Below, one piece after another: positions 8,104-18,526 of a stretch of 23,958 nucleotides of DNA. Each line of letters starts with the position of its first letter. The first letter of the stretch is position 1. The notes beneath the pieces were generated by a model. The model was not told the origin of the DNA and did no database searches. It saw nothing but the letters and a program-made list of their open reading frames with translations. The stretch is from a virus. Location: positions 1 through 23,958 of IMG/VR virus record IMGVR_UViG_3300011114_001050; one strand, written 5' to 3'. The translations under genes were made by a program, and so were the position numbers.

Positions 8104-8559
8104 TTACTGCCATCGATGCGATTTCTCCTGCTTCTTAATTTCTTTAGAAAGCTTTGAATTTGCAACACCAATCTGAGCCTCAGAAGTCTTGGCATGTTCT
8201 GCACATTGTTCTGAAATAATGCTATTGTACTCCTCCGCCGACAGTAATTTCTGCAAATATGTCATGAGGTAATGTCGAGAATATTTGAATTTCTGATCGA
8301 AGCTAGCCTCCGATTCGGCAATAATGTCGCTCAATCGAATTTTCAAGAGTTCATTTAATTCCGGCATCCATGGAACACAGATCAATTGCATTTGGAATTC
8401 GGCTGTCACCACCGGATAAAGCTGTAATGGCTTCTGCAAGATTACTCGATTATTCTTAATATTGCGCTGGCTTTCTTCGGCCAAGATTAAAGAACCATCC
8501 ATCATCCGATATAAACGGATTGGAAGAGATTGAATGTAATTATGCAGATCGTCTGTCAT
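8104..8559 (-). CDS. Sm-like-domain hypothetical protein
   Basis: A 151-residue protein of unknown function. The first ~75 residues (IRLYRMMDGSLILAEES, then VILQKPLQLYPV, then QLICVPWMPE) resemble the short Sm/LSM-like barrel seen in many hypothetical proteins of T4-like environmental phages near uvsW and gp55. A helical middle and a Lys/Glu/Gln-rich C-terminal tail follow. It starts 9 nt after the UvsW stop. A CATAAATA motif overlaps that stop, six bases ahead of the ATG. Whether it binds RNA is not known; the fold is inferred from sequence pattern only. Confidence 0.6.
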   Translation of the reverse strand: MTDDLHNYIQSLPIRLYRMMDGSLILAEESQRNIKNNRVILQKPLQLYPVVTAEFQMQLICVPWMPELNELLKIRLSDIIAESEASFDQKFKYSRHYLMTYLQKLLSAEEYNSIISEQCAEHAKTSEAQIGVANSKLSKEIKKQEKSHRWQ

Positions 8560-8565
8560 ATAATA

Positions 8566-8573
8566 TATTTATG
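8566..8573 (-). promoter_or_regulatory. Late-promoter-like CATAAATA before the Sm-like gene
   Basis: CATAAATA overlaps the UvsW stop codon and ends 6 nt before the ATG at 8559. If used as a -10 element the transcript would be leaderless. Confidence 0.45.
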
Positions 8574-10086
8574 AGATTGGAACATCATGAACTTCAAAGT
8601 CAAATTTTTCCATGGTGTATATTTTAGCGCGAGCCATGCCATGTTCTAGAGTATAGTTTTTAACACCATTCTTCGAAAGATTGTCGGCAATGTCGTAGAC
8701 TGTAGTTGGTCGATCATCCTCAGTCTTTCGAAGTCCGCGGCCAATCGATTGAAGAACGCGGATCTGAGATTTGGTTGGAGAAGCAAAGATAATGTTATGC
8801 AGATTCCGAATGTTGACTCCCGTTGAAAATGTTCCAACCGAAGCGACGATGACGGCGCCATCTTCCTTTTCAACTAGAGATCGGATCCGTTCACGTTCAT
8901 CGGTCTCAACCTCTCCAGAAACAAAATAGACTTTACGTTTGGAACCATCGAGTTTTTTCTTAATCGATTCGAAAAGTGGTTCGCCGTGTTTTTCGACGAA
9001 TTGAAAAAGAACCAGGGAATTTCCTTTTAAATCGGCCGTCAGATTTACGATGAAACGATTTCGAGGTTCATATGCCGTTAAAAAATCAAGCTCTTCGTGG
9101 TAATCGGCATTCTTCTGTTCGTCGCAAAGGCGCTTTGGATATTTCAGAACAAGCATGTGAATCTTGAGCTGTGCCAGTGTTCCAGCATCGATCAGCTCCG
9201 ACGTCGTCGTCACTCGAAATACAGGACCAAAGCACCCTTCCAAGACGAGCTGATTAACCTTGGCATCTTCTCCACCGGGAAGCGTACCAGTAGTTCCAAT
9301 ACGAAACCATGCATTCTTGAGCCAGCTCATGATTTTCGTCAGAGACACGGCTTTGAAAAGGTGCGCTTCATCTCCAAAGACGGCACCAAAGCTTTCAAAC
9401 CATTTGGGTCCCATTGTAATCGCGGATTGCCACGTGGTGATAATGACCGGCGCGGCCGAATCCTTTTCTTGACCAGAGTAGATTCGATGGAGGTCTTTCT
9501 CGGCATTAAACGTCTTGTCACCAGTCGAATAATCCGTGAAGTCTTTATACATTTGTTCAACGAGTGCCGTGGTTGGAACAATGATAATAGCTTTCTTACT
9601 CGCGCCTTTCGTATTGTCCAAGTACCATCGTAAAAGTTGGTAGATGATCAGAGATTTACCAGATCCGGTTGGAGATACGAGCAGCGTTTTCTTATTCTCA
9701 ATCGCATGAGCAATTGCTTCGGCTTGATAATCGCGTATCTCCAGATCTTCACCGTCATTACCAACGGCCGAATAAGCGGCTACGGACGACGCGGATTCAG
9801 CTTCTGACAGCTTTGGAAGCGCTAGCCCTGATGCCAGTATCAGTTCGTGTTTACGCGACGAACAAAACTGAGCCAGATGATATAACAAACCGCCGGGTAA
9901 AGACTGATTACGAAGATTTAGAAGTCTGATTTTGCCATCCCAATGATGATTCCGGAATGCCGGAGAGAACTTGTATCCAGGCGAGAAGAATGAAAAGAAG
10001 TCCGAAAGCTCTTGCATGACTCCGGCATCTTCACATGTAATACGAAGATGCGCCTGATCGATCTGACTAACATGTATTGCACTCAT
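8569..10086 (-). CDS. uvsW: UvsW recombination DNA/RNA helicase
   Basis: A 505-residue SF2 helicase, almost exactly the length of T4 UvsW (503). The N-terminal domain (LRITCEDAGVMQELSDFFSF, then GYKFSPAFRNHHWDGKIRLL) matches the T4 UvsW N-domain. Motif I SPTGSGKS is at 138-145, motif II DEAH at 239-242, and motif VI QSIGRGLRK is near the C-terminus. UvsW unwinds R-loops and branched DNA, switching replication from origin-initiated to recombination-driven. The ATG overlaps the stop of the upstream fusion gene by 4 nt (ATGA), so translation is coupled. Confidence 0.95.
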   Translation of the reverse strand: MSAIHVSQIDQAHLRITCEDAGVMQELSDFFSFFSPGYKFSPAFRNHHWDGKIRLLNLRNQSLPGGLLYHLAQFCSSRKHELILASGLALPKLSEAESASSVAAYSAVGNDGEDLEIRDYQAEAIAHAIENKKTLLVSPTGSGKSLIIYQLLRWYLDNTKGASKKAIIIVPTTALVEQMYKDFTDYSTGDKTFNAEKDLHRIYSGQEKDSAAPVIITTWQSAITMGPKWFESFGAVFGDEAHLFKAVSLTKIMSWLKNAWFRIGTTGTLPGGEDAKVNQLVLEGCFGPVFRVTTTSELIDAGTLAQLKIHMLVLKYPKRLCDEQKNADYHEELDFLTAYEPRNRFIVNLTADLKGNSLVLFQFVEKHGEPLFESIKKKLDGSKRKVYFVSGEVETDERERIRSLVEKEDGAVIVASVGTFSTGVNIRNLHNIIFASPTKSQIRVLQSIGRGLRKTEDDRPTTVYDIADNLSKNGVKNYTLEHGMARAKIYTMEKFDFEVHDVPIS

Positions 10087-11048
10087 ATGTCTTTAGTACA
10101 GATGTCTTGTGTTCCGTATTTCTGTGTTCCATGTAATCCGCAACTGATTCGATCACTCAGATACTTGAATTCTCCACTTTCTTTGCCTACGTATTTGACG
10201 ATCGCGATCAGGGCTTTTTGTTGAAATTGCCTATCATGATCGCAGTGCTGAGCCAGGAGCCAGTAATTGTTCCAGTCGTCCTGTCCAAATGTTTCGAAAT
10301 CAAATTTCACTCCAATGAATTTTTGCAAACGGTCCTTCTCGCCAAAGACGTCATCGGCGTCTCTATCATGCAACTTAGCATACATCTGAGCGCCCTTCTC
10401 CCAATCGCCATTCGCTTTAGTCTTTACGAAAGCCTGATAGGATTTTCGTTCGCTCTGATCTTGAGCGACTAAGGTTGAAAGCATCTGATTGGATTCTTTT
10501 AAAAGAATCTGCTTTACCGTCTCATTGAGATTCAACTCGTCACTCTCATCGCCATCCGATGTGTCACCAAAGGCATAGGATAGAATTATCTTGGGTCGTG
10601 CATGGCACGCAACCAGTGCGGCGTTAATATCTTCGAGACATTCATTAGCCGCACCACCTGCCAGATCAACATCCTTTCCCGAAAAAGATTCGCACAATTT
10701 TAATAGATCGTCTTCCAGGAGAAAGTAAGGATGTACACCCGAAGTCTGAACAATCATTCTTCCATCATCAGTGTGAAAAGAATCGCTATGGCCATTTCTA
10801 TACTTTTTTAATTCGGATCCCGACAAGTAATCTTCTACATTGCTATCGTCCAAATCAAATCCATATTGTTTTTCAATGGACCGCACTTCATTTGGAAATA
10901 TAAAATCAGGTTTAACGGAATCGATGCTATCAAATATCTGATAGACTTTTTTATATTCTCGACAAAGAGTTTTTACCTTCTGTACGAATCCAAGATTATT
11001 TTTAAGAAAATGTCGTTGAACATCAATTACGATTAGTGCATTTTTCAT
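10083..11048 (-). CDS. Isochorismatase-like hydrolase fused to a DUF6624-like domain
   Basis: A 321-residue protein set between uvsY and uvsW. Residues 1-~165 resemble the isochorismatase/cysteine hydrolase fold: ALIVIDVQRHFL with Asp9, a possible Lys82 ahead of SDSF, and AGGAANECLEDI with Cys137, giving a candidate Asp-Lys-Cys triad. Residues ~190-314 resemble DUF6624: DQSER near the start, then WLLAQHCDHDRQFQ (263-276), YLSDR (296-300) and QKYGTQ (309-314), ending 7 residues later. I know of no reported function for DUF6624. Substrate is unknown; isochorismatase relatives include nicotinamidases and other amidases, so a role in small-molecule turnover is a guess. GATAAATA lies 5 nt before the ATG. 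Coupled to uvsW by ATGA overlap. Confidence 0.7.
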   Translation of the reverse strand: MKNALIVIDVQRHFLKNNLGFVQKVKTLCREYKKVYQIFDSIDSVKPDFIFPNEVRSIEKQYGFDLDDSNVEDYLSGSELKKYRNGHSDSFHTDDGRMIVQTSGVHPYFLLEDDLLKLCESFSGKDVDLAGGAANECLEDINAALVACHARPKIILSYAFGDTSDGDESDELNLNETVKQILLKESNQMLSTLVAQDQSERKSYQAFVKTKANGDWEKGAQMYAKLHDRDADDVFGEKDRLQKFIGVKFDFETFGQDDWNNYWLLAQHCDHDRQFQQKALIAIVKYVGKESGEFKYLSDRISCGLHGTQKYGTQDICTKDI

Positions 11049-11053
11049 AGAAG

Positions 11054-11061
11054 TATTTATC
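11054..11061 (-). promoter_or_regulatory. Late-promoter-like GATAAATA before the fusion gene
   Basis: GATAAATA follows the UvsY stop codon (TAG) directly, sharing its last base, and ends 5 nt before the ATG at 11048. Confidence 0.45.
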
Positions 11062-11513
11062 TACGCTCCAGAGGTAAACTTTCGAAAATCCAGAACGTTC
11101 TTGATGTGCTGATGTCTCCACCTCAAGGTATCTAAGATTTCCGTGACGGCATCGACTCCAGTCTGAAAGTAAGTTTTCTTATCAATGAGAATTCGAAGTT
11201 CTGAATCGGAATCGATGTATGTTTCCAGATCCGATCGAAGGGGCTTGGACGCTCCTTTGAATGGATCGTATGGCCACTTACGTTCATCCATCTCTTCCTT
11301 GCTCATCTTGCCTGTGAAGTACATCCACTTGGCATGGCGAACTTCTGAAATTTTAGATTCGGATAATCGAAGCTTAAGTTTGTAATCTGTCAGGTAAGTC
11401 AAATACTTGGCATGGATGTTTGCATACTTGATAGTTGAATCGTCTAGAGCCAGAGAATCGATTTGGCAATCGACTTCCCACTCTCCAATAATGTCTTCAA
11501 TTGATTTATTCAT
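11061..11513 (-). CDS. uvsY: UvsY recombination mediator
   Basis: A 150-residue protein matching T4 UvsY (137 residues), which loads the UvsX recombinase onto single-stranded DNA covered by gp32. Diagnostic segments are KYANIHAKYLTYLTDYKLKL near the N-terminus, the WMYFTGKMSKEE region (T4: DYYSGRG), and the end IKNVLDFRKFTSG (T4: IKHIQDMRAFEAG). It follows gp3, as in cyanophage-type T4 genomes. A CATAAATA motif overlapping the gp3 stop lies 14 nt before the ATG. Confidence 0.85.
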   Translation of the reverse strand: MNKSIEDIIGEWEVDCQIDSLALDDSTIKYANIHAKYLTYLTDYKLKLRLSESKISEVRHAKWMYFTGKMSKEEMDERKWPYDPFKGASKPLRSDLETYIDSDSELRILIDKKTYFQTGVDAVTEILDTLRWRHQHIKNVLDFRKFTSGA

Positions 11514-11527
11514 GATGTAAGCGAATT

Positions 11528-11535
11528 TATTTATG
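11528..11535 (-). promoter_or_regulatory. Late-promoter-like CATAAATA before uvsY
   Basis: CATAAATA overlaps the gp3 stop codon and ends 14 nt before the UvsY ATG. Confidence 0.45.
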
Positions 11536-12025
11536 GAAGCACGTTAAGGTAGTTGAAGCGAAGAGTCATGTCACATGCTATGTAAGTTACTCCTTCGGCC
11601 TGTGTATCAAAGGACAGTTCGGAAATACCGATTGGAAATGCATCGATAAATTGAAATTGCCTGTTACTAGTATTCTTTGACGATAGAACCGAAAGAATGA
11701 TGTCCATTCTCTCTGGAGGTTTCGTACTGACAGAATTTTTATTTGAAAGGGAGGCGAGCCATCGATAGGCTTCGATGTAATTATTCATGTTCTCATCGAC
11801 CATGAAACGCACTTTCAAGGCTTCATAGGCCAGAGTATCTCCTGGAAAATATGCCTCCTGATTCAGATAGTTTTTCTTGACCGCGCCGATCGAAATACTT
11901 GGAAGATTGACGGAGGTGCAGAAGAATTCGATATTGGCAAAATCCAAATGCTGAATGGTTAATTTGAAATTAACTTGGGAAAGGAAATTGACGTTGGTCG
12001 TTAGCGCCGATAATGGTATACTCAT
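11531..12025 (-). CDS. 3: Tail completion and sheath stabiliser protein gp3 (tail terminator)
   Basis: A 164-residue protein with the pattern of T4 gp3 (176 residues): 'LAYEALKVRFMVDENMNNYI' parallels T4 'FEYDPLIVRFIVDEELRSWI', followed by the EAYRWLASLS helix and a closing 'YIACDMTLRFNYLNV' (T4 'LVCTATFYYTYFQV'). gp3 caps the tail tube and stabilises the sheath before head joining. It shares a fold with tail-tube proteins, so a gp19 paralogue is the alternative; position between gp23 and uvsY, the usual gp3 position in cyanophage-type genomes, favours gp3. It has its own late-promoter motif and follows a terminator. Confidence 0.82.
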   Translation of the reverse strand: MSIPLSALTTNVNFLSQVNFKLTIQHLDFANIEFFCTSVNLPSISIGAVKKNYLNQEAYFPGDTLAYEALKVRFMVDENMNNYIEAYRWLASLSNKNSVSTKPPERMDIILSVLSSKNTSNRQFQFIDAFPIGISELSFDTQAEGVTYIACDMTLRFNYLNVLP

Positions 12026-12148: not shown

Positions 12149-13732
12149 TTACACCGCCGGGGTCTGAGCACCTTGAGCACCGCGGAGGCTCAGATTTTTC
12201 ACGTTGAACGTGCGGTAGTAGAAGTTGCCGCGATCGGCGCCGGACTGAGTGACTGCATTGGCTCCGTTGATCTGATTGACGAAGGGATTCGAAACCACAC
12301 CATACCGAGTCTTGAAGGCAATCTTCGGCTGGAAGGTGTTCGGATCGATCGCGCGAACCATGGTGAGAGGCACGTACGGAGCGTAGAAGATACCCGCATC
12401 ATACGGATTTGTTCCACGATAACCGACCGTGATGTAGTCCGTGAAGGAATACGGATCGACGTAGACTTTAATGCGGCCATTGAGAACACCGGCGAAGGTG
12501 TTGCCAGTGTCATCGACTTCGAGCTTAGTGCTCAGAGCCTGAGCATAATCCAAAGAACCGGCCGCGGCGAGGGCCGAAGCAACGTTCGAGGAACAGAGGA
12601 TGAAGTTACCCTTACCACGCCGTGTTTCCTTGGCGATCTGGTTGGCTTCAAGTTCGATTGCCATGTGAAGGCTCTTATACCGTTCCGCGGCCCAACGACC
12701 ATCGGCATCGCGCGCCACGTCGTAGATACCTGCGTTAGTATAACCAAAGCGAGCACCAAGGACGGCTTTCGCATTGATCGTCTCAATGACTTCACGATTG
12801 ATTTCAAACAGAATCTCCGAGGAGAGAATGTTCGCCAATTCGCTCTCGGCATCCAGACCATGAACGGCCTTAAGATCCTGAGCAAGTTCCATCGTGTAAG
12901 AAGCTTTAAGAGCGCGGGTATTAGCCGTCACAACTGTCTTCTCGATGTCAAAGCCCATTTCACCGAAGGCAGTGCCGCCAGTAGATCCCAGAGCTTCTGC
13001 AGTAGCCGTAGCAATACCGATACCAGACTGGCCGATACCAGCAACGCCGGTAAAGACGGAGGTAATGGGAGAGAGGTTGGCAAACAGGAGGGTCGAAGCG
13101 GTGTTAACGATGACACCGGTAGCAGTATCAAAAGATATCTGCGTGCCTGACACCGAGGTAATCCGCGTACCGGCAACGAAACCCTGACCAATGATGAGAT
13201 CGCCGGCCGAAAGACCGGTGACAGCCGCCGAAAGGCTCATGAGCAATGTGGTAGCAGAAACGCTAACTATCGAGCTGACCGTGCCAGTGAAGTATGACGC
13301 CTGGGCAGTGGTAGAAGAACCCGCCACGGAAGGCTGAGTCGTAGTCACACCACTGACACCACCATACAGCGCATCATCGCCGGGAGTGACGATCGTCGCT
13401 CCGGAAATAGTGAGAGGAGTAGTATACTTCGGCTTCAGCGCGAAGATCAGACCAGTAGGTCCACTCATCGGCTGAACACCAGCAACGTCGTAGGCGATCA
13501 GGTTCGGCATGGCCCGGCGGACCAGCGAGATCAGGATCGGATCGAAGTTCTGAATTGCACCGGTGCCCATATCGGCTTCGGTAATCATTCGGCGCTCTTC
13601 CTTCAGAGCCTTCTCTTGGTTTTCGAGCAACGCGGCCGTAACTTGACGGCGATAGTTGTCTTTAAAGGCTGGAGCTTCGGGGTGGTCCAGAACGGGTCCC
13701 CACTTTTTAATAGATTGTTCGGTGTTAAACAT
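12149..13732 (-). CDS. 23: Major capsid protein gp23
   Basis: A 527-residue match to T4 gp23 (521). Recognisable segments are GPTGLIFALKPKY (91-103), EMGFDIEKTVV, SYTMELAQDLKAVHGLDAES, LFEINREVIETINAKAVLG, RRGKGNFILCSSNV and YAPYVPLTMVRAIDPNTFQP. A prohead-protease-type cleavage site I-T-E/A is at residues 50-53, so the first 52 residues are probably removed during maturation. Residues about 112-225, including the SAVTGLSAGDLIIGQGF-like stretch, differ from T4 and look like a surface beta-module. A CATAAATA late promoter, a 28-nt spacing to the ATG without Shine-Dalgarno motif, and a strong terminator make it a separate high-level unit. Confidence 0.97.
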   Translation of the reverse strand: MFNTEQSIKKWGPVLDHPEAPAFKDNYRRQVTAALLENQEKALKEERRMITEADMGTGAIQNFDPILISLVRRAMPNLIAYDVAGVQPMSGPTGLIFALKPKYTTPLTISGATIVTPGDDALYGGVSGVTTTQPSVAGSSTTAQASYFTGTVSSIVSVSATTLLMSLSAAVTGLSAGDLIIGQGFVAGTRITSVSGTQISFDTATGVIVNTASTLLFANLSPITSVFTGVAGIGQSGIGIATATAEALGSTGGTAFGEMGFDIEKTVVTANTRALKASYTMELAQDLKAVHGLDAESELANILSSEILFEINREVIETINAKAVLGARFGYTNAGIYDVARDADGRWAAERYKSLHMAIELEANQIAKETRRGKGNFILCSSNVASALAAAGSLDYAQALSTKLEVDDTGNTFAGVLNGRIKVYVDPYSFTDYITVGYRGTNPYDAGIFYAPYVPLTMVRAIDPNTFQPKIAFKTRYGVVSNPFVNQINGANAVTQSGADRGNFYYRTFNVKNLSLRGAQGAQTPAV

Positions 13733-13781: not shown

Positions 13782-15005
13782 TCACTCTGCTTTACGATTT
13801 GGATTATGAGATTCGGCGCGAGAGATGGCGCCCATGTATCGTTTCATATCCTGCGTCATGTGTGCCATGGCATCTTCCTGACCTTCGACGATCACTTCAG
13901 AAGACTTGGTACCAGACGCTCTAACTGTTTCATTCATGTTCTGCTCCAGAATAGGAGCGAACTTCTTAGACTGAGGTGTTTTTCCTGCGAAGAACGATTC
14001 TTTAATTACAGCAACTTTCTTCTTGAAGGCTTCGGCCGATTCAAAGACAGAATCCCTAGTAAGTTCATTGAGTTTGGAAGCCTGTGTAGTCGCCAATCCT
14101 TTAGCCGCTTCCGCGACAATTGATTTGCGAAGCAAAGACTCGTTCTGTTTCTTAGAGCTTACTATAGAACTCCGAGCTTCTTTCACTTGAACTTGAAGTT
14201 CGACGACGCGAGCATTCAACGATTCAACCAAGTCTTTATCAGCCCGGGGAACCTCGATGTAATTCTCGGCAAACACGTTCTTCAGAGAAGTGATGAAACT
14301 TTCAGCGATTTCGGTTCGAAGAGTGGAGTCAATCGCGACCTGATTATTCTTGATCCAGGATTCGACGACATATGTGAGATATGAATCGACCTGTTCTGTA
14401 ACCGTATTCAAGATTTCATCAGCTCTAGTAGCCAATTTTACTTTATAGGCTTCATAGAGTTGTTTCCGTCCAGCCCGAACTTTGGACTTTACGGCCGCTT
14501 CGAAGATGACCTTAGCTTTGGCTTTGAAACCTTCTGTCAGATTATTTTCACCAGAGATCAGAGCATTCACGTCTTCTTCCATGTCAACTTCAGGATCTTT
14601 GACGTCTTCATCTTCATCTTCATCTTCATCCTCATCTTCTTCATCCTCATCGGAATCAGCTTCATCGGAATCAGCTTCATCAGCGTCACTATGTTCATCC
14701 TCGTCGGAATCGATAACTTCACCTTCACCGGCCTCAGGCCCTTCATCCCCATCGGATTCAGAAGCTTCGCCATCTTCCACAGTGGAGTCATCATCCGACA
14801 TGGAATTCACAGTGTCGAATTCAATTTCCGCGTTCCCATCGTTCTCACTTGGTTCCTCTTGCGCAACTGAATCAGCAACCGAAACAGATATAGGATGCGT
14901 TACCGGCTTAAGCGCAGTTGGAGCAACCGCGATGGCCTTTTCGATATCCGACATGTCCTGATCCGATTCTTGAATCACCGTTTTATTACTTTGCTTTTTA
15001 AGCAT
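13782..15005 (-). CDS. 22: Prohead scaffold protein gp22
   Basis: A 407-residue scaffold (T4 gp22 is 269). I chose the ATG at 15005 (MLKKQ; T4 starts MLKEQ) over an in-frame TTG at 15038; the sequence before it is A-rich. The C-terminal two-thirds fit gp22: FKAKAKVIFEAAVKSKVRAG, YLTYVVESWIKNNQVAIDS, then FAENYIEVPRADKDLVESL, a coiled coil and SEAFKKKVAVIKESFF-like sequence. Residues ~50-146 are extremely acidic (Asp/Glu/Ser). Such acid tracts belong to gp67 in T4, whereas the gp67-like protein here has none. It lies between gp21 and gp23 in the canonical order. It forms the core on which gp23 assembles and is destroyed by gp21. Confidence 0.9.
   Translation of the reverse strand: MLKKQSNKTVIQESDQDMSDIEKAIAVAPTALKPVTHPISVSVADSVAQEEPSENDGNAEIEFDTVNSMSDDDSTVEDGEASESDGDEGPEAGEGEVIDSDEDEHSDADEADSDEADSDEDEEDEDEDEDEDEDVKDPEVDMEEDVNALISGENNLTEGFKAKAKVIFEAAVKSKVRAGRKQLYEAYKVKLATRADEILNTVTEQVDSYLTYVVESWIKNNQVAIDSTLRTEIAESFITSLKNVFAENYIEVPRADKDLVESLNARVVELQVQVKEARSSIVSSKKQNESLLRKSIVAEAAKGLATTQASKLNELTRDSVFESAEAFKKKVAVIKESFFAGKTPQSKKFAPILEQNMNETVRASGTKSSEVIVEGQEDAMAHMTQDMKRYMGAISRAESHNPNRKAE
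14606..14692. repeat. Low-complexity acidic-codon repeat in gp22
   Basis: TCATCT/TCATCC-type hexamers run from about 14606 to 14650 and a 15-mer ATCGGAATCAGCTTC is repeated after them. They encode the Asp/Glu/Ser tract of the scaffold. Confidence 0.75.
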
Positions 15006-15064
15006 TTGTTTTATTTTGGTTTGCGAGAGGAAATCCAATGGACCTCTATCTCATTATTTTCAAT

Positions 15065-15135: not shown

Positions 15136-15801
15136 TTACTGAACAGAAAATGACGAACAATCTTTTAGAAATGTAGTGAGCTCTTTGGCTTGCATTTCCT
15201 CGAGGTACCTCGAAGGAGTCGCACTAATTTTTTTCTTGATGTTCTCGATTTTACGAGCGACAAATTCATTTCCGTTCTTGAAAAAATCTACACCCTCCAT
15301 GATGCCTTCAACGAAAGCCGAAGGAGCCGAAGGATCCTGCACAATGTCAATCGTCGAAAGTGTAAAGTCGGACTTGACGTACGTCTTTCCACCTCTAGAC
15401 TCGACCGATCCCATACCCCTCGAAGATACTCCAAGCTTCACACCGCCATCTAGGAGCCCCTTGACAATCATGCCCATGGGAGTATTCAGAATCAAAGCCT
15501 TTCCATGGACGTTATCTCCATTCCACGATAGCTGAGTAATGCGATGGCTTACCTTATCCAAATTGATCTGCGGACCATCGGGATGATTAAGTTCACCAAC
15601 CGCGCGGCCAGTTGAAACAGATTCAGATATAAATCTAGCCACGGCTTCTTTCAGAATTTCGCGAGGATAAATGCGATTATTTCGATTCTGCTTTTCAGCT
15701 TGCATAAATACACCTTCGAGAAAGAATTTCTTCTCTCCATTCGAAGCAGCTTCAACCAGAGCCTTTACTCCAATTTCGTTGTATTCGCAGATTAGTTTCA
15801 T
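15136..15801 (-). CDS. 21: Prohead core protease gp21
   Basis: A 221-residue serine protease of the T4 gp21 family (peptidase family S80). The start at 15801 (MKLICEYNE) is preferred over an upstream in-frame codon at 15852 because it avoids most of the overlap with gp67 and begins 1 nt after its stop. FFLEGVFMQAEKQNRNNRIY (26-45) parallels T4 'LYIEGIFMQAEVVNRNKRLY'. The likely catalytic residues are His73 in GELNHP, Ser126 or Ser127 in GVSSRG, and Asp156 in VQDPSAP. It cleaves scaffold and capsid proteins after (I/L)-x-E during head maturation. Confidence 0.95.
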   Translation of the reverse strand: MKLICEYNEIGVKALVEAASNGEKKFFLEGVFMQAEKQNRNNRIYPREILKEAVARFISESVSTGRAVGELNHPDGPQINLDKVSHRITQLSWNGDNVHGKALILNTPMGMIVKGLLDGGVKLGVSSRGMGSVESRGGKTYVKSDFTLSTIDIVQDPSAPSAFVEGIMEGVDFFKNGNEFVARKIENIKKKISATPSRYLEEMQAKELTTFLKDCSSFSVQ

Positions 15802-17866: not shown

Positions 17867-18526
17867 TTATGCAAGATTTCCAACACCAAACGAACCGCCT
17901 CCGCCAAGATTGAGGCCGCCGACTTTACCGCTAATGTTTACTGCTATTTCGGCTCCAAGTCCGCCGATAGTGCCAGCCGTGCCAGCCGACCGTTTATTGC
18001 CGGCAAACTTCGTAGAATTGGATATCCAATATTGATATTCGAATGTCACTTCAAATTCTTCGATGGCATCGTTAGTCTCATATGCAACCTCGATCGCACC
18101 AATCGATGTAGGAAAGGCGTCGACGAACAGATATCTCTTGATATCATTTCCAGACTTATCCATCTGAATTACCTGCAATTGACACATGTAGCTACTGAAA
18201 TCGGTGTGACCGGTATTCGAAGGCGCAGGATTGCTGATATCAATCCAACTTTCGAAGGCATTTCGAAGATCGAATGTACTATCATTGATGACCTTAACAG
18301 TCCATGTATCAAAGGTACGATCGCCGGGAATCTTAAATTTGCGACCTCGAAAAGGAATTTCAATTTTCCCCTGTGTCGATGCGGGAAGAGCCGCCGACTT
18401 AATCATGAAGGTAGCCTGTTGCTGATTCCCCCCAGTCCCACTTGGAAAAGGACATTCGACTCGAAACAAGTTAGCTCGAGCTCCACCGCCTACCAGCCTC
18501 GCTTTAAAATCGTTTAAGCTATGCAT
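17867..18526 (-). CDS. 19: Tail tube protein gp19
   Basis: A 219-residue tail tube subunit (T4 gp19 is 163). Typical segments are the N-terminal FKARLVGGGARANLFRVECP, IPFRGRKFKIPGDRTFDTWT, FDLRNAFESWIDISNP and the closing FEVTFEYQYWISN. It polymerises into the inner tail tube under the sheath. It is longer than T4 because of loops and a ~40-residue Gly-rich C-terminal tail (GGLNLGGGGSFGVGNLA). It is flanked by its own AATAAATA late promoter and a strong terminator, consistent with a high-copy product. Confidence 0.93.
   Translation of the reverse strand: MHSLNDFKARLVGGGARANLFRVECPFPSGTGGNQQQATFMIKSAALPASTQGKIEIPFRGRKFKIPGDRTFDTWTVKVINDSTFDLRNAFESWIDISNPAPSNTGHTDFSSYMCQLQVIQMDKSGNDIKRYLFVDAFPTSIGAIEVAYETNDAIEEFEVTFEYQYWISNSTKFAGNKRSAGTAGTIGGLGAEIAVNISGKVGGLNLGGGGSFGVGNLA

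What the first reader, a model, noticed from the sequence alone, without database searches (positions are those of the whole stretch)
10083..11048. Isochorismatase-like hydrolase fused to DUF6624-like domain, inserted between uvsY and uvsW
In cyanophage-type T4 genomes uvsY is followed by uvsW. Here a 321-residue two-domain gene separates them, coupled to uvsW by an ATGA overlap and preceded by GATAAATA. The N-domain has a candidate Asp9/Lys82/Cys137 triad. The C-domain ends in WLLAQHCDHD...YLSDR...QKYGTQ, resembling DUF6624, for which I know no function. The fusion links an uncharacterised domain with a small-molecule hydrolase in the phage recombination operon; NAD or signal-molecule turnover during infection is one possibility.
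Basis: partly seen in the sequence, partly recalled or inferred. Interest (0 to 1): 0.75.

Follow-up and report, generated by a model that had tools for sequence, protein, structure and literature searches.

The report
Phage protein carrying two tagged cargoes
A T4-like virus gene joins two unrelated protein modules through a short tag that looks like the virus's own 'pack me into the head' signal; the second module has jumped between distantly related viruses, each supplying its own tag, which suggests both are cargo carried in the virus particle and injected into the host.

Summary
DUF6624 homology of the C-domain is supported by profile-profile comparison (98% probability) but not by Pfam's own model. 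The N-domain's isochorismatase fold is supported only structurally; Asp9 and Cys137 are invariant in 36 relatives, Lys82 is not (8/36), and His106 is.

It reads ...NLNETVKQILLKE185|SNQ and fits the L/I-x-E site of T4 prohead protease; gp23 boundaries in 39 of 40 relatives end in E, and the window's own is ITE|A. Close relatives carry the N-domain alone or the C-domain alone at this locus. In other phages the C-domain sits behind other tags (MTPxRFMVLLE|, MTFKELNILLLE|) or inside polyproteins with repeated QGVAE|G linkers. Across the 24-kb window, the only DNA shared with two distant T4-type phages is this C-module (92%, residues 184-321). There it is 41% GC in a 57% GC genome and begins directly after their own tag.

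Best explanation: a head-packaged, injected two-cargo protein with a central capsid-targeting and cleavage tag. Packaging, cleavage and both activities are inferred; only one contig carries the fusion.

The parts
10083..11048 (-). 321-aa two-domain ORF (P0001)
   Evidence: stop codon 10083-10085, ATGA overlap with uvsW
10569..11048 (-). N-domain, residues 1-160: phage-specific isochorismatase-like Rossmannoid domain; invariant D9, H106, C137
   Evidence: 247 viral relatives, no relative found in genome contigs by the pattern scan
10524..10565 (-). low-confidence (probably disordered) linker, residues 162-175
   Evidence: pLDDT < 50 at 162-172
10494..10532 (-). capsid-targeting-like tag NLNETVKQILLKE (residues 173-185) ending in an L-x-E prohead-protease-type site, predicted cut E185|S186
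   Evidence: aligns with MKLNQVAKQILLDE| that starts the free C-domain gene of G005
10083..10493 (-). C-domain, residues 186-321: short-form DUF6624-like helical domain
10081..10499 (-). horizontally exchanged module: only DNA shared with G003 (91.6%) and G004 (92.7%); starts at residue 184
10499..10521 (-). recombination joint: N-part matches L001/L002 (93.9% to L001) up to 10521, C-module matches G003 from 10499 (and G005 from 10515)
11054..11061 (-). GATAAATA, T4-type late-promoter-like box 6 nt before the start codon (very close; possibly not a promoter for this gene)
11061..11513 (-). uvsY
8569..10086 (-). uvsW helicase
15136..15801 (-). gp21-type prohead protease (likely start M at 15801); own N-terminus carries ALVE|A
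13782..15038 (-). gp22-type scaffold; N-terminus carries TVIQE|S
12149..13732 (-). gp23 major head protein; propeptide boundary RRMITE|ADMG (E52, at 13577)

Best explanation
The gene encodes a two-cargo internal head protein of a T4-like phage. Made late, it is drawn into the prohead core by a short capsid-targeting-type tag that here lies in the middle of the chain (NLNETVKQILLKE). Prohead protease gp21 then cuts after Glu185, releasing an isochorismatase-like hydrolase (tag left at its C-terminus) and a DUF6624-like domain. Both are ejected with the DNA and act on the new host early in infection. Shown: the fusion, the L-x-E site at the joint, the matching site in gp23 relatives, the separate existence of each half behind tags in other phages, and transfer of the C-module with breakpoints at the tag. 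Inferred: packaging, cleavage, injection and the two enzymatic activities.
For: Joint ILLKE185|S fits the gp21-type site: gp23 boundary in 40 relatives has P1=E in 39, P3=L34/I3/M3, P1'=A22/T9/S3, and the window's gp23 has ITE|A; only four [LIM]xE occur in the 321 aa. At the same locus relatives have N alone (L001, L002, G016) or C alone with leader MKLNQVAKQILLDE| (G005). C-domain homologues follow tags in other lineages: MTP(V/A)RFMVLLE|, MTFKELNILLLE|, MRDNTTKLLE, or QGVAE|G linkers within 455-1302-aa polyproteins. In G003 and G004 the tag MxPxxFxx[LMIV]x[ED] occurs 15 and 16 times against 0.9 and 1.4 in shuffles, mostly at residue 1. In G004 the same cluster has a tagged ART-PolyVal protein (above Pfam's cut-off), a domain named for polyvalent proteins that are predicted to be injected (PMC5512222, PMC9503650). 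The C-module is the only DNA shared by the window and G003/G004 (92%), starts at residue 184 here and right after their 11-aa tag there, and is 41% GC in 57% GC genomes. 46 of 52 distinct N-domain homologues start with an MKxIKTFE-like tag in phages; all six records tested have a T4-type capsid protein. T4 CTS and gp21 rules: PMC9026906.
Against: No proteomic or functional data. A known CTS is N-terminal; an internal one is unproven, although T4 Alt is processed at both ends (PMC9026906). No second tagged accessory gene was available in the window's own lineage, so the tag is inferred from relatives. The general tag regex is not significant in the window, G001, G005, G006, G010 or G011. L-x-E is a short motif. 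Megaphage tags end TFE, not L/I-x-E. Only one contig has the fusion. AF2 puts the site in a low-confidence helix start.
Confidence: 0.5

Rival explanations
1. An ordinary cytoplasmic accessory enzyme: a small-molecule cysteine hydrolase that gained a partner domain by chance recombination. The tag-like stretch is only a helical linker and nothing is packaged.
For: In other T4-likes the uvsY-uvsW slot holds unrelated untagged genes. The N-domain has no N-terminal tag here. L-x-E is short and can arise by chance. The box GATAAATA is shared with many genes.
Against: It does not explain why the C-domain repeatedly sits directly behind different tags or repeated linkers in other phages, why the exchanged DNA starts at the tag end, or why the N-domain's own relatives are tagged.
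Confidence: 0.27
2. The tag is a genuine sorting tag but not for head packaging or proteolysis: for example recruitment to another phage structure or to a host partner, with the fusion acting as one intact bifunctional protein.
For: Tags differ between lineages and several do not end in L/I-x-E (TFE in megaphages; VAE in the linkers).
Against: Tag length and layout match T4 IP propeptides (10-19 aa, cut after L/I-x-E; PMC9026906). G004 encodes a T4-type protease and a capsid protein whose boundary is LDE|A.
Confidence: 0.15
3. Assembly chimera: the two halves were joined by misassembly of metagenomic reads.
For: Only this contig has the fusion; each half is found alone in close relatives.
Against: The joint is in frame, flanked on both sides by the same lineage's uvsY and uvsW, and keeps an ATGA overlap with uvsW that differs in sequence from the N-only relatives. 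G005 has the C-domain at this same position.
Confidence: 0.05

Closest known systems
T4 internal head proteins (IPI, IPII, IPIII, Alt) with capsid-targeting sequences cut by gp21
   Same: Short tag ending in L/I-x-E; late-type gene near head genes; diverse cargo behind a tag; Alt is processed at both ends (PMC9026906, PMC3012670)
   Different: Tag lies between two cargo domains; domains unrelated to IPs or Alt; cargo recombines between phages that each supply a different tag
Polyvalent proteins (Iyer et al. 2017, PMC5512222)
   Same: Several effector-like domains in one phage polypeptide predicted to enter the host; an ART-PolyVal gene stands in the same tagged cluster of G004
   Different: No embedded peptidase found; predicted release by the prohead protease at repeated tags or linkers
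DUF6624 (PF20329)
   Same: QHxDxDxxFQ, YLxDR and QxYGTQ motifs; hhalign 98.1%
   Different: Phage form is shorter (the C-terminal P-D-RR part is missing) and is not found by the Pfam model
Isochorismatase-like cysteine hydrolases (PncA, YcaC, RutB, EntB)
   Same: Predicted order of strands, D9 after strand 1, C137 at a helix start after GGxxxEC; Foldseek 2b34 probability 0.99
   Different: Catalytic Lys not found, His106 invariant instead; no significant sequence match; the pattern scan of genome contigs found no relative

Membership tests
T4-type CTS-tagged internal head protein | Tag ending in a prohead-protease site L/I-x-E | tested here: met
   ILLKE185|S; gp23 boundary logo in 40 relatives
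T4-type CTS-tagged internal head protein | Tag at the N-terminus | tested here: not met
   In the window the tag is internal; in G003, G004, G005 and G010 the same C-domain has it N-terminally
T4-type CTS-tagged internal head protein | Present in the virion and cleaved | not testable with these tools
   No proteome available
T4-type CTS-tagged internal head protein | Same tag type shared by several cargo genes of the phage | tested here: inconclusive
   Met in G003/G004 (15 and 16 tags); no accessory genes to test in the window's lineage
DUF6624 (PF20329) | Score above Pfam's gathering cut-off | tested here: not met
   No hit at E up to 10
DUF6624 (PF20329) | Core motifs and profile-profile similarity | tested here: met
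   98.1% probability; Q90 H91 D93 F98 Q99 D122 R123 Q132 GTQ (C-domain numbering) invariant
Isochorismatase superfamily (PF00857) | Significant sequence match | tested here: not met
   Best E 0.099 in 3 of 30 members; hhalign 2.4%
Isochorismatase superfamily (PF00857) | Fold | tested here: inconclusive
   AF2 N-domain mostly pLDDT 80-97; best PDB match 2b34 with probability 0.99, E 7e-3, TMt 0.39. That 2b34 belongs to this superfamily is from memory
Isochorismatase superfamily (PF00857) | Asp-Lys-Cys triad | tested here: not met
   D9 and C137 36/36, K82 8/36; H106 36/36
Polyvalent proteins | Two or more disparate domains in one phage protein | tested here: met
Polyvalent proteins | Embedded peptidase or virion-structural domain that releases or delivers the parts | tested here: not met
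   No such domain found in P0001 by Pfam, PHROGs or NCBIfam

The most novel reading that the evidence does not exclude
T4-type phages share a general cargo-polyprotein system. Effector modules are strung together, separated by lineage-specific repeated tags or linkers (MTPxxFxxLxE, QGVAE|G, VLKKGSEEAGIDIDI, LNETVKQILLKE) that target them to the prohead and are cut by the prohead protease. Modules move between distant phages, and each phage supplies its own tag.
Probability: 0.35. Interest if true: 0.85.

Novelty: new variant of a known kind. Interest (0 to 1): 0.63.

Why it matters
If right, a short recurring tag lets one predict which anonymous phage genes are carried in the virion and injected, and shows that cargo domains are traded between distantly related phages while the delivery tag stays local. 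It also suggests that T4-type phages use the head protease to process multi-effector polyproteins, which would link many genes of unknown function to early host takeover, and it gives DUF6624 a first testable setting in phages.

Tried and rejected
Lys82 as catalytic residue: rejected, not conserved. The uvsY-uvsW slot as a general cargo slot: rejected, inserts in other T4-likes are untagged and varied. Single-sequence AF2: pLDDT 37, useless. Alignment A8: N-rows were split by MAFFT, discarded for A7. Scans of genome contigs with both domains: no relatives. PDB profile searches with A4, A5 and A10: only chance-level hits. PADLOC and NCBIfam: nothing for the window protein. Third domain of G005: no relatives. 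Text search for the linker GVAEG: no phage paper. A general CTS regex over all contigs was significant in G003 and G004 and nominally in G007 and G009, but not in the window, G001, G005, G006, G008, G010 or G011, so the argument rests on lineage-specific tags and breakpoints, not on that regex.

Full report
Observation. The ORF is real and lies at the stated coordinates on the minus strand. The window is a 23,958-base virus record carrying a T4-type block read on the minus strand: terminase small and large subunits, sheath, tube, portal, gp21 protease, gp22 scaffold, gp23, a second tube-like gene, uvsY, this ORF, uvsW, a 151-aa ORF, gp55, gp47, gp46. The nearest portal proteins are from marine cyanophages at about 48% identity. 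In 58 of 74 T4-like contigs uvsY and uvsW have no ORF of 40 aa or more between them (counted), so the insert is unusual, but inserts in other lineages are varied and untagged.

Two modules. The scan of viral contigs immediately split the protein: two contigs match residues 1-184 only and three match about 172/181-321 only. In L001 and L002 (and at the edge of G016) the N-domain stands alone between uvsY and uvsW and ends LDESIKRVLRKP*. In G005, the C-domain stands right after uvsY with its own start, MKLNQVAKQILLDE|SNQML, and is followed in frame by a second tag-like stretch (MNFDNLVNLILE|G, residue 156) and a third domain. In G003 and G004, phages of different gene content, it is a free gene starting MTP(V/A)RFMVLLE|KESNQML. 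The window is the only fusion seen.

The joint. Window DNA matches L001 at 93.9% up to base 10521 (residue 176), and L002 ends at the same base. It matches G003 at 91.6% from base 10499 (residue 184) to the end of the gene. Over the whole window this 411-419-bp stretch is the only nucleotide match to the 40.5-kb G003 and 61.3-kb G004 contigs; the detectable shared structural proteins (gp18 in both, gp21 and gp23 in G004) are only 27-33% identical. In G003 the match begins at codon 12, just after its 11-residue tag. There the module has 41% GC against a 57% genome, at the bottom 0.1% of windows. So a cargo module moved between very distant T4-type phages, and each phage attached its own leader. 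This is the strongest result here.

What the tag is. PMC9026906 states that T4 internal proteins have N-terminal propeptides of 10-19 residues (capsid targeting sequences), that gp21 cuts after L/I-x-E, and that Alt is also processed at its C-terminus. The gp23 boundary of 40 relatives shows P1=E in 39, P3=L/I/M in all 40, and P1'=A/T/S in most; the window's own sites read ITE|A (gp23), ALVE|A (gp21) and TVIQE|S (gp22). The joint reads ILLKE185|S, one of four L/I/M-x-E in the protein. G003 and G004 hold 15 and 16 copies of MxPxxFxx[LMIV]x[ED] against 0.9 and 1.4 in shuffled proteins, mostly at residue 1, some internal or C-terminal. One internal case precedes a region with sub-threshold GNAT similarity, the same layout as the window. 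One tagged gene in that cluster is an ART-PolyVal protein. G003 and G004, 94-99% identical over most of the region compared, differ by module replacements beside such tags.

Polyproteins. Distant C-domain homologues (53-60%) lie, in four of these lineages, inside ORFs of 455-1302 aa with repeated QGVAE|G-type linkers, one directly before the C-domain each time. Another phage (G011) has a different repeated linker, VLKKGSxEAGIDIDI, in 159-1188-aa ORFs near its copy. The linkers look like further versions of the same idea, but their motif (VAE) is not L/I-x-E and their cleavage is unproven.

N-domain. 247 viral relatives and none in the genome contigs pattern scan; four huge-phage records among annotated phages. 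46 of 52 distinct sequences begin with a tag such as MKYIKTFE, and the six host records checked have a T4-type capsid protein with a boundary such as SINE|N where it could be read. D9, Q11, F14, H106, G131, G132, E136, C137 and D140 are invariant; K82 is not. The model has mean pLDDT 82.8, with a Rossmann-like N-domain, a linker below 50 at 162-172, and a helical C-domain. Foldseek's best PDB match is 2b34, probability 0.99 but E 7e-3. Sequence methods do not place it in the isochorismatase family, so it is filed as isochorismatase-like by fold only, with a possible His in place of Lys.

C-domain. Tblastn finds plasmid DUF6624 proteins at 5e-4 to 1e-3; hhalign gives 98.1% over the core motifs; Pfam's model does not reach it. 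The phage form lacks the C-terminal part. DUF6624 has no known function; one paper notes it in graspetide gene clusters as a possible biosynthetic enzyme (PMC13097080).

Conclusion. The best reading is a head-packaged two-cargo protein with a central targeting and cleavage tag (0.5). The plain alternative is an untagged cytoplasmic fusion enzyme (0.27). Packaging, cleavage and activities are inferred.

Noticed in passing
L203, L204, L206 (G007-G009) and L202 (G006): Large ORFs (455-1302 aa) with repeated (K/E/Q)QGVAE(G/A) or QSVAEG linkers; no description found in the paper library.
   Followed up: partly
L223 (G011 20672-36472): ORFs of 159-1188 aa with a repeated linker VLKKGS(E/K)EAGI(E/D)IDI at internal and C-terminal positions, and N-termini MR(D/N/S)xYKVLxE.
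   Followed up: partly
L024-L030 (G003, G004): About 15 ORFs per contig share the tag MxPxxFxxLxE, including an ART-PolyVal protein; GNAT proteins carry it at the C-terminus.
   Followed up: yes
L113-L190 loci: In huge-phage relatives, neighbouring ORFs often begin MKHIRTFE or MRYLKTFE: 70 of 269 neighbours match a loose tag pattern against 42 of 822 internal-Met controls (some matches, such as HAD-type FDFD starts, are false).
   Followed up: partly
window 8104-8559: 151-aa ORF between uvsW and gp55 found in only three other contigs; a marker of this rare lineage.
   Followed up: partly
window 11531-12025: Second tail-tube-like gene (phrog_45) between gp23 and uvsY, besides gp19 at 17867-18526.
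   Followed up: no
L005 4466-4984: Third domain fused after the C-domain, preceded by MNFDNLVNLILE|G; no relatives in viral contigs.
   Followed up: partly
window minus strand: BATAAATA boxes lie 6-60 nt before gp20, gp23, the second tube gene, uvsY, this ORF and the 151-aa ORF; several are so close to the ATG that a leaderless transcript or another role is possible.
   Followed up: partly
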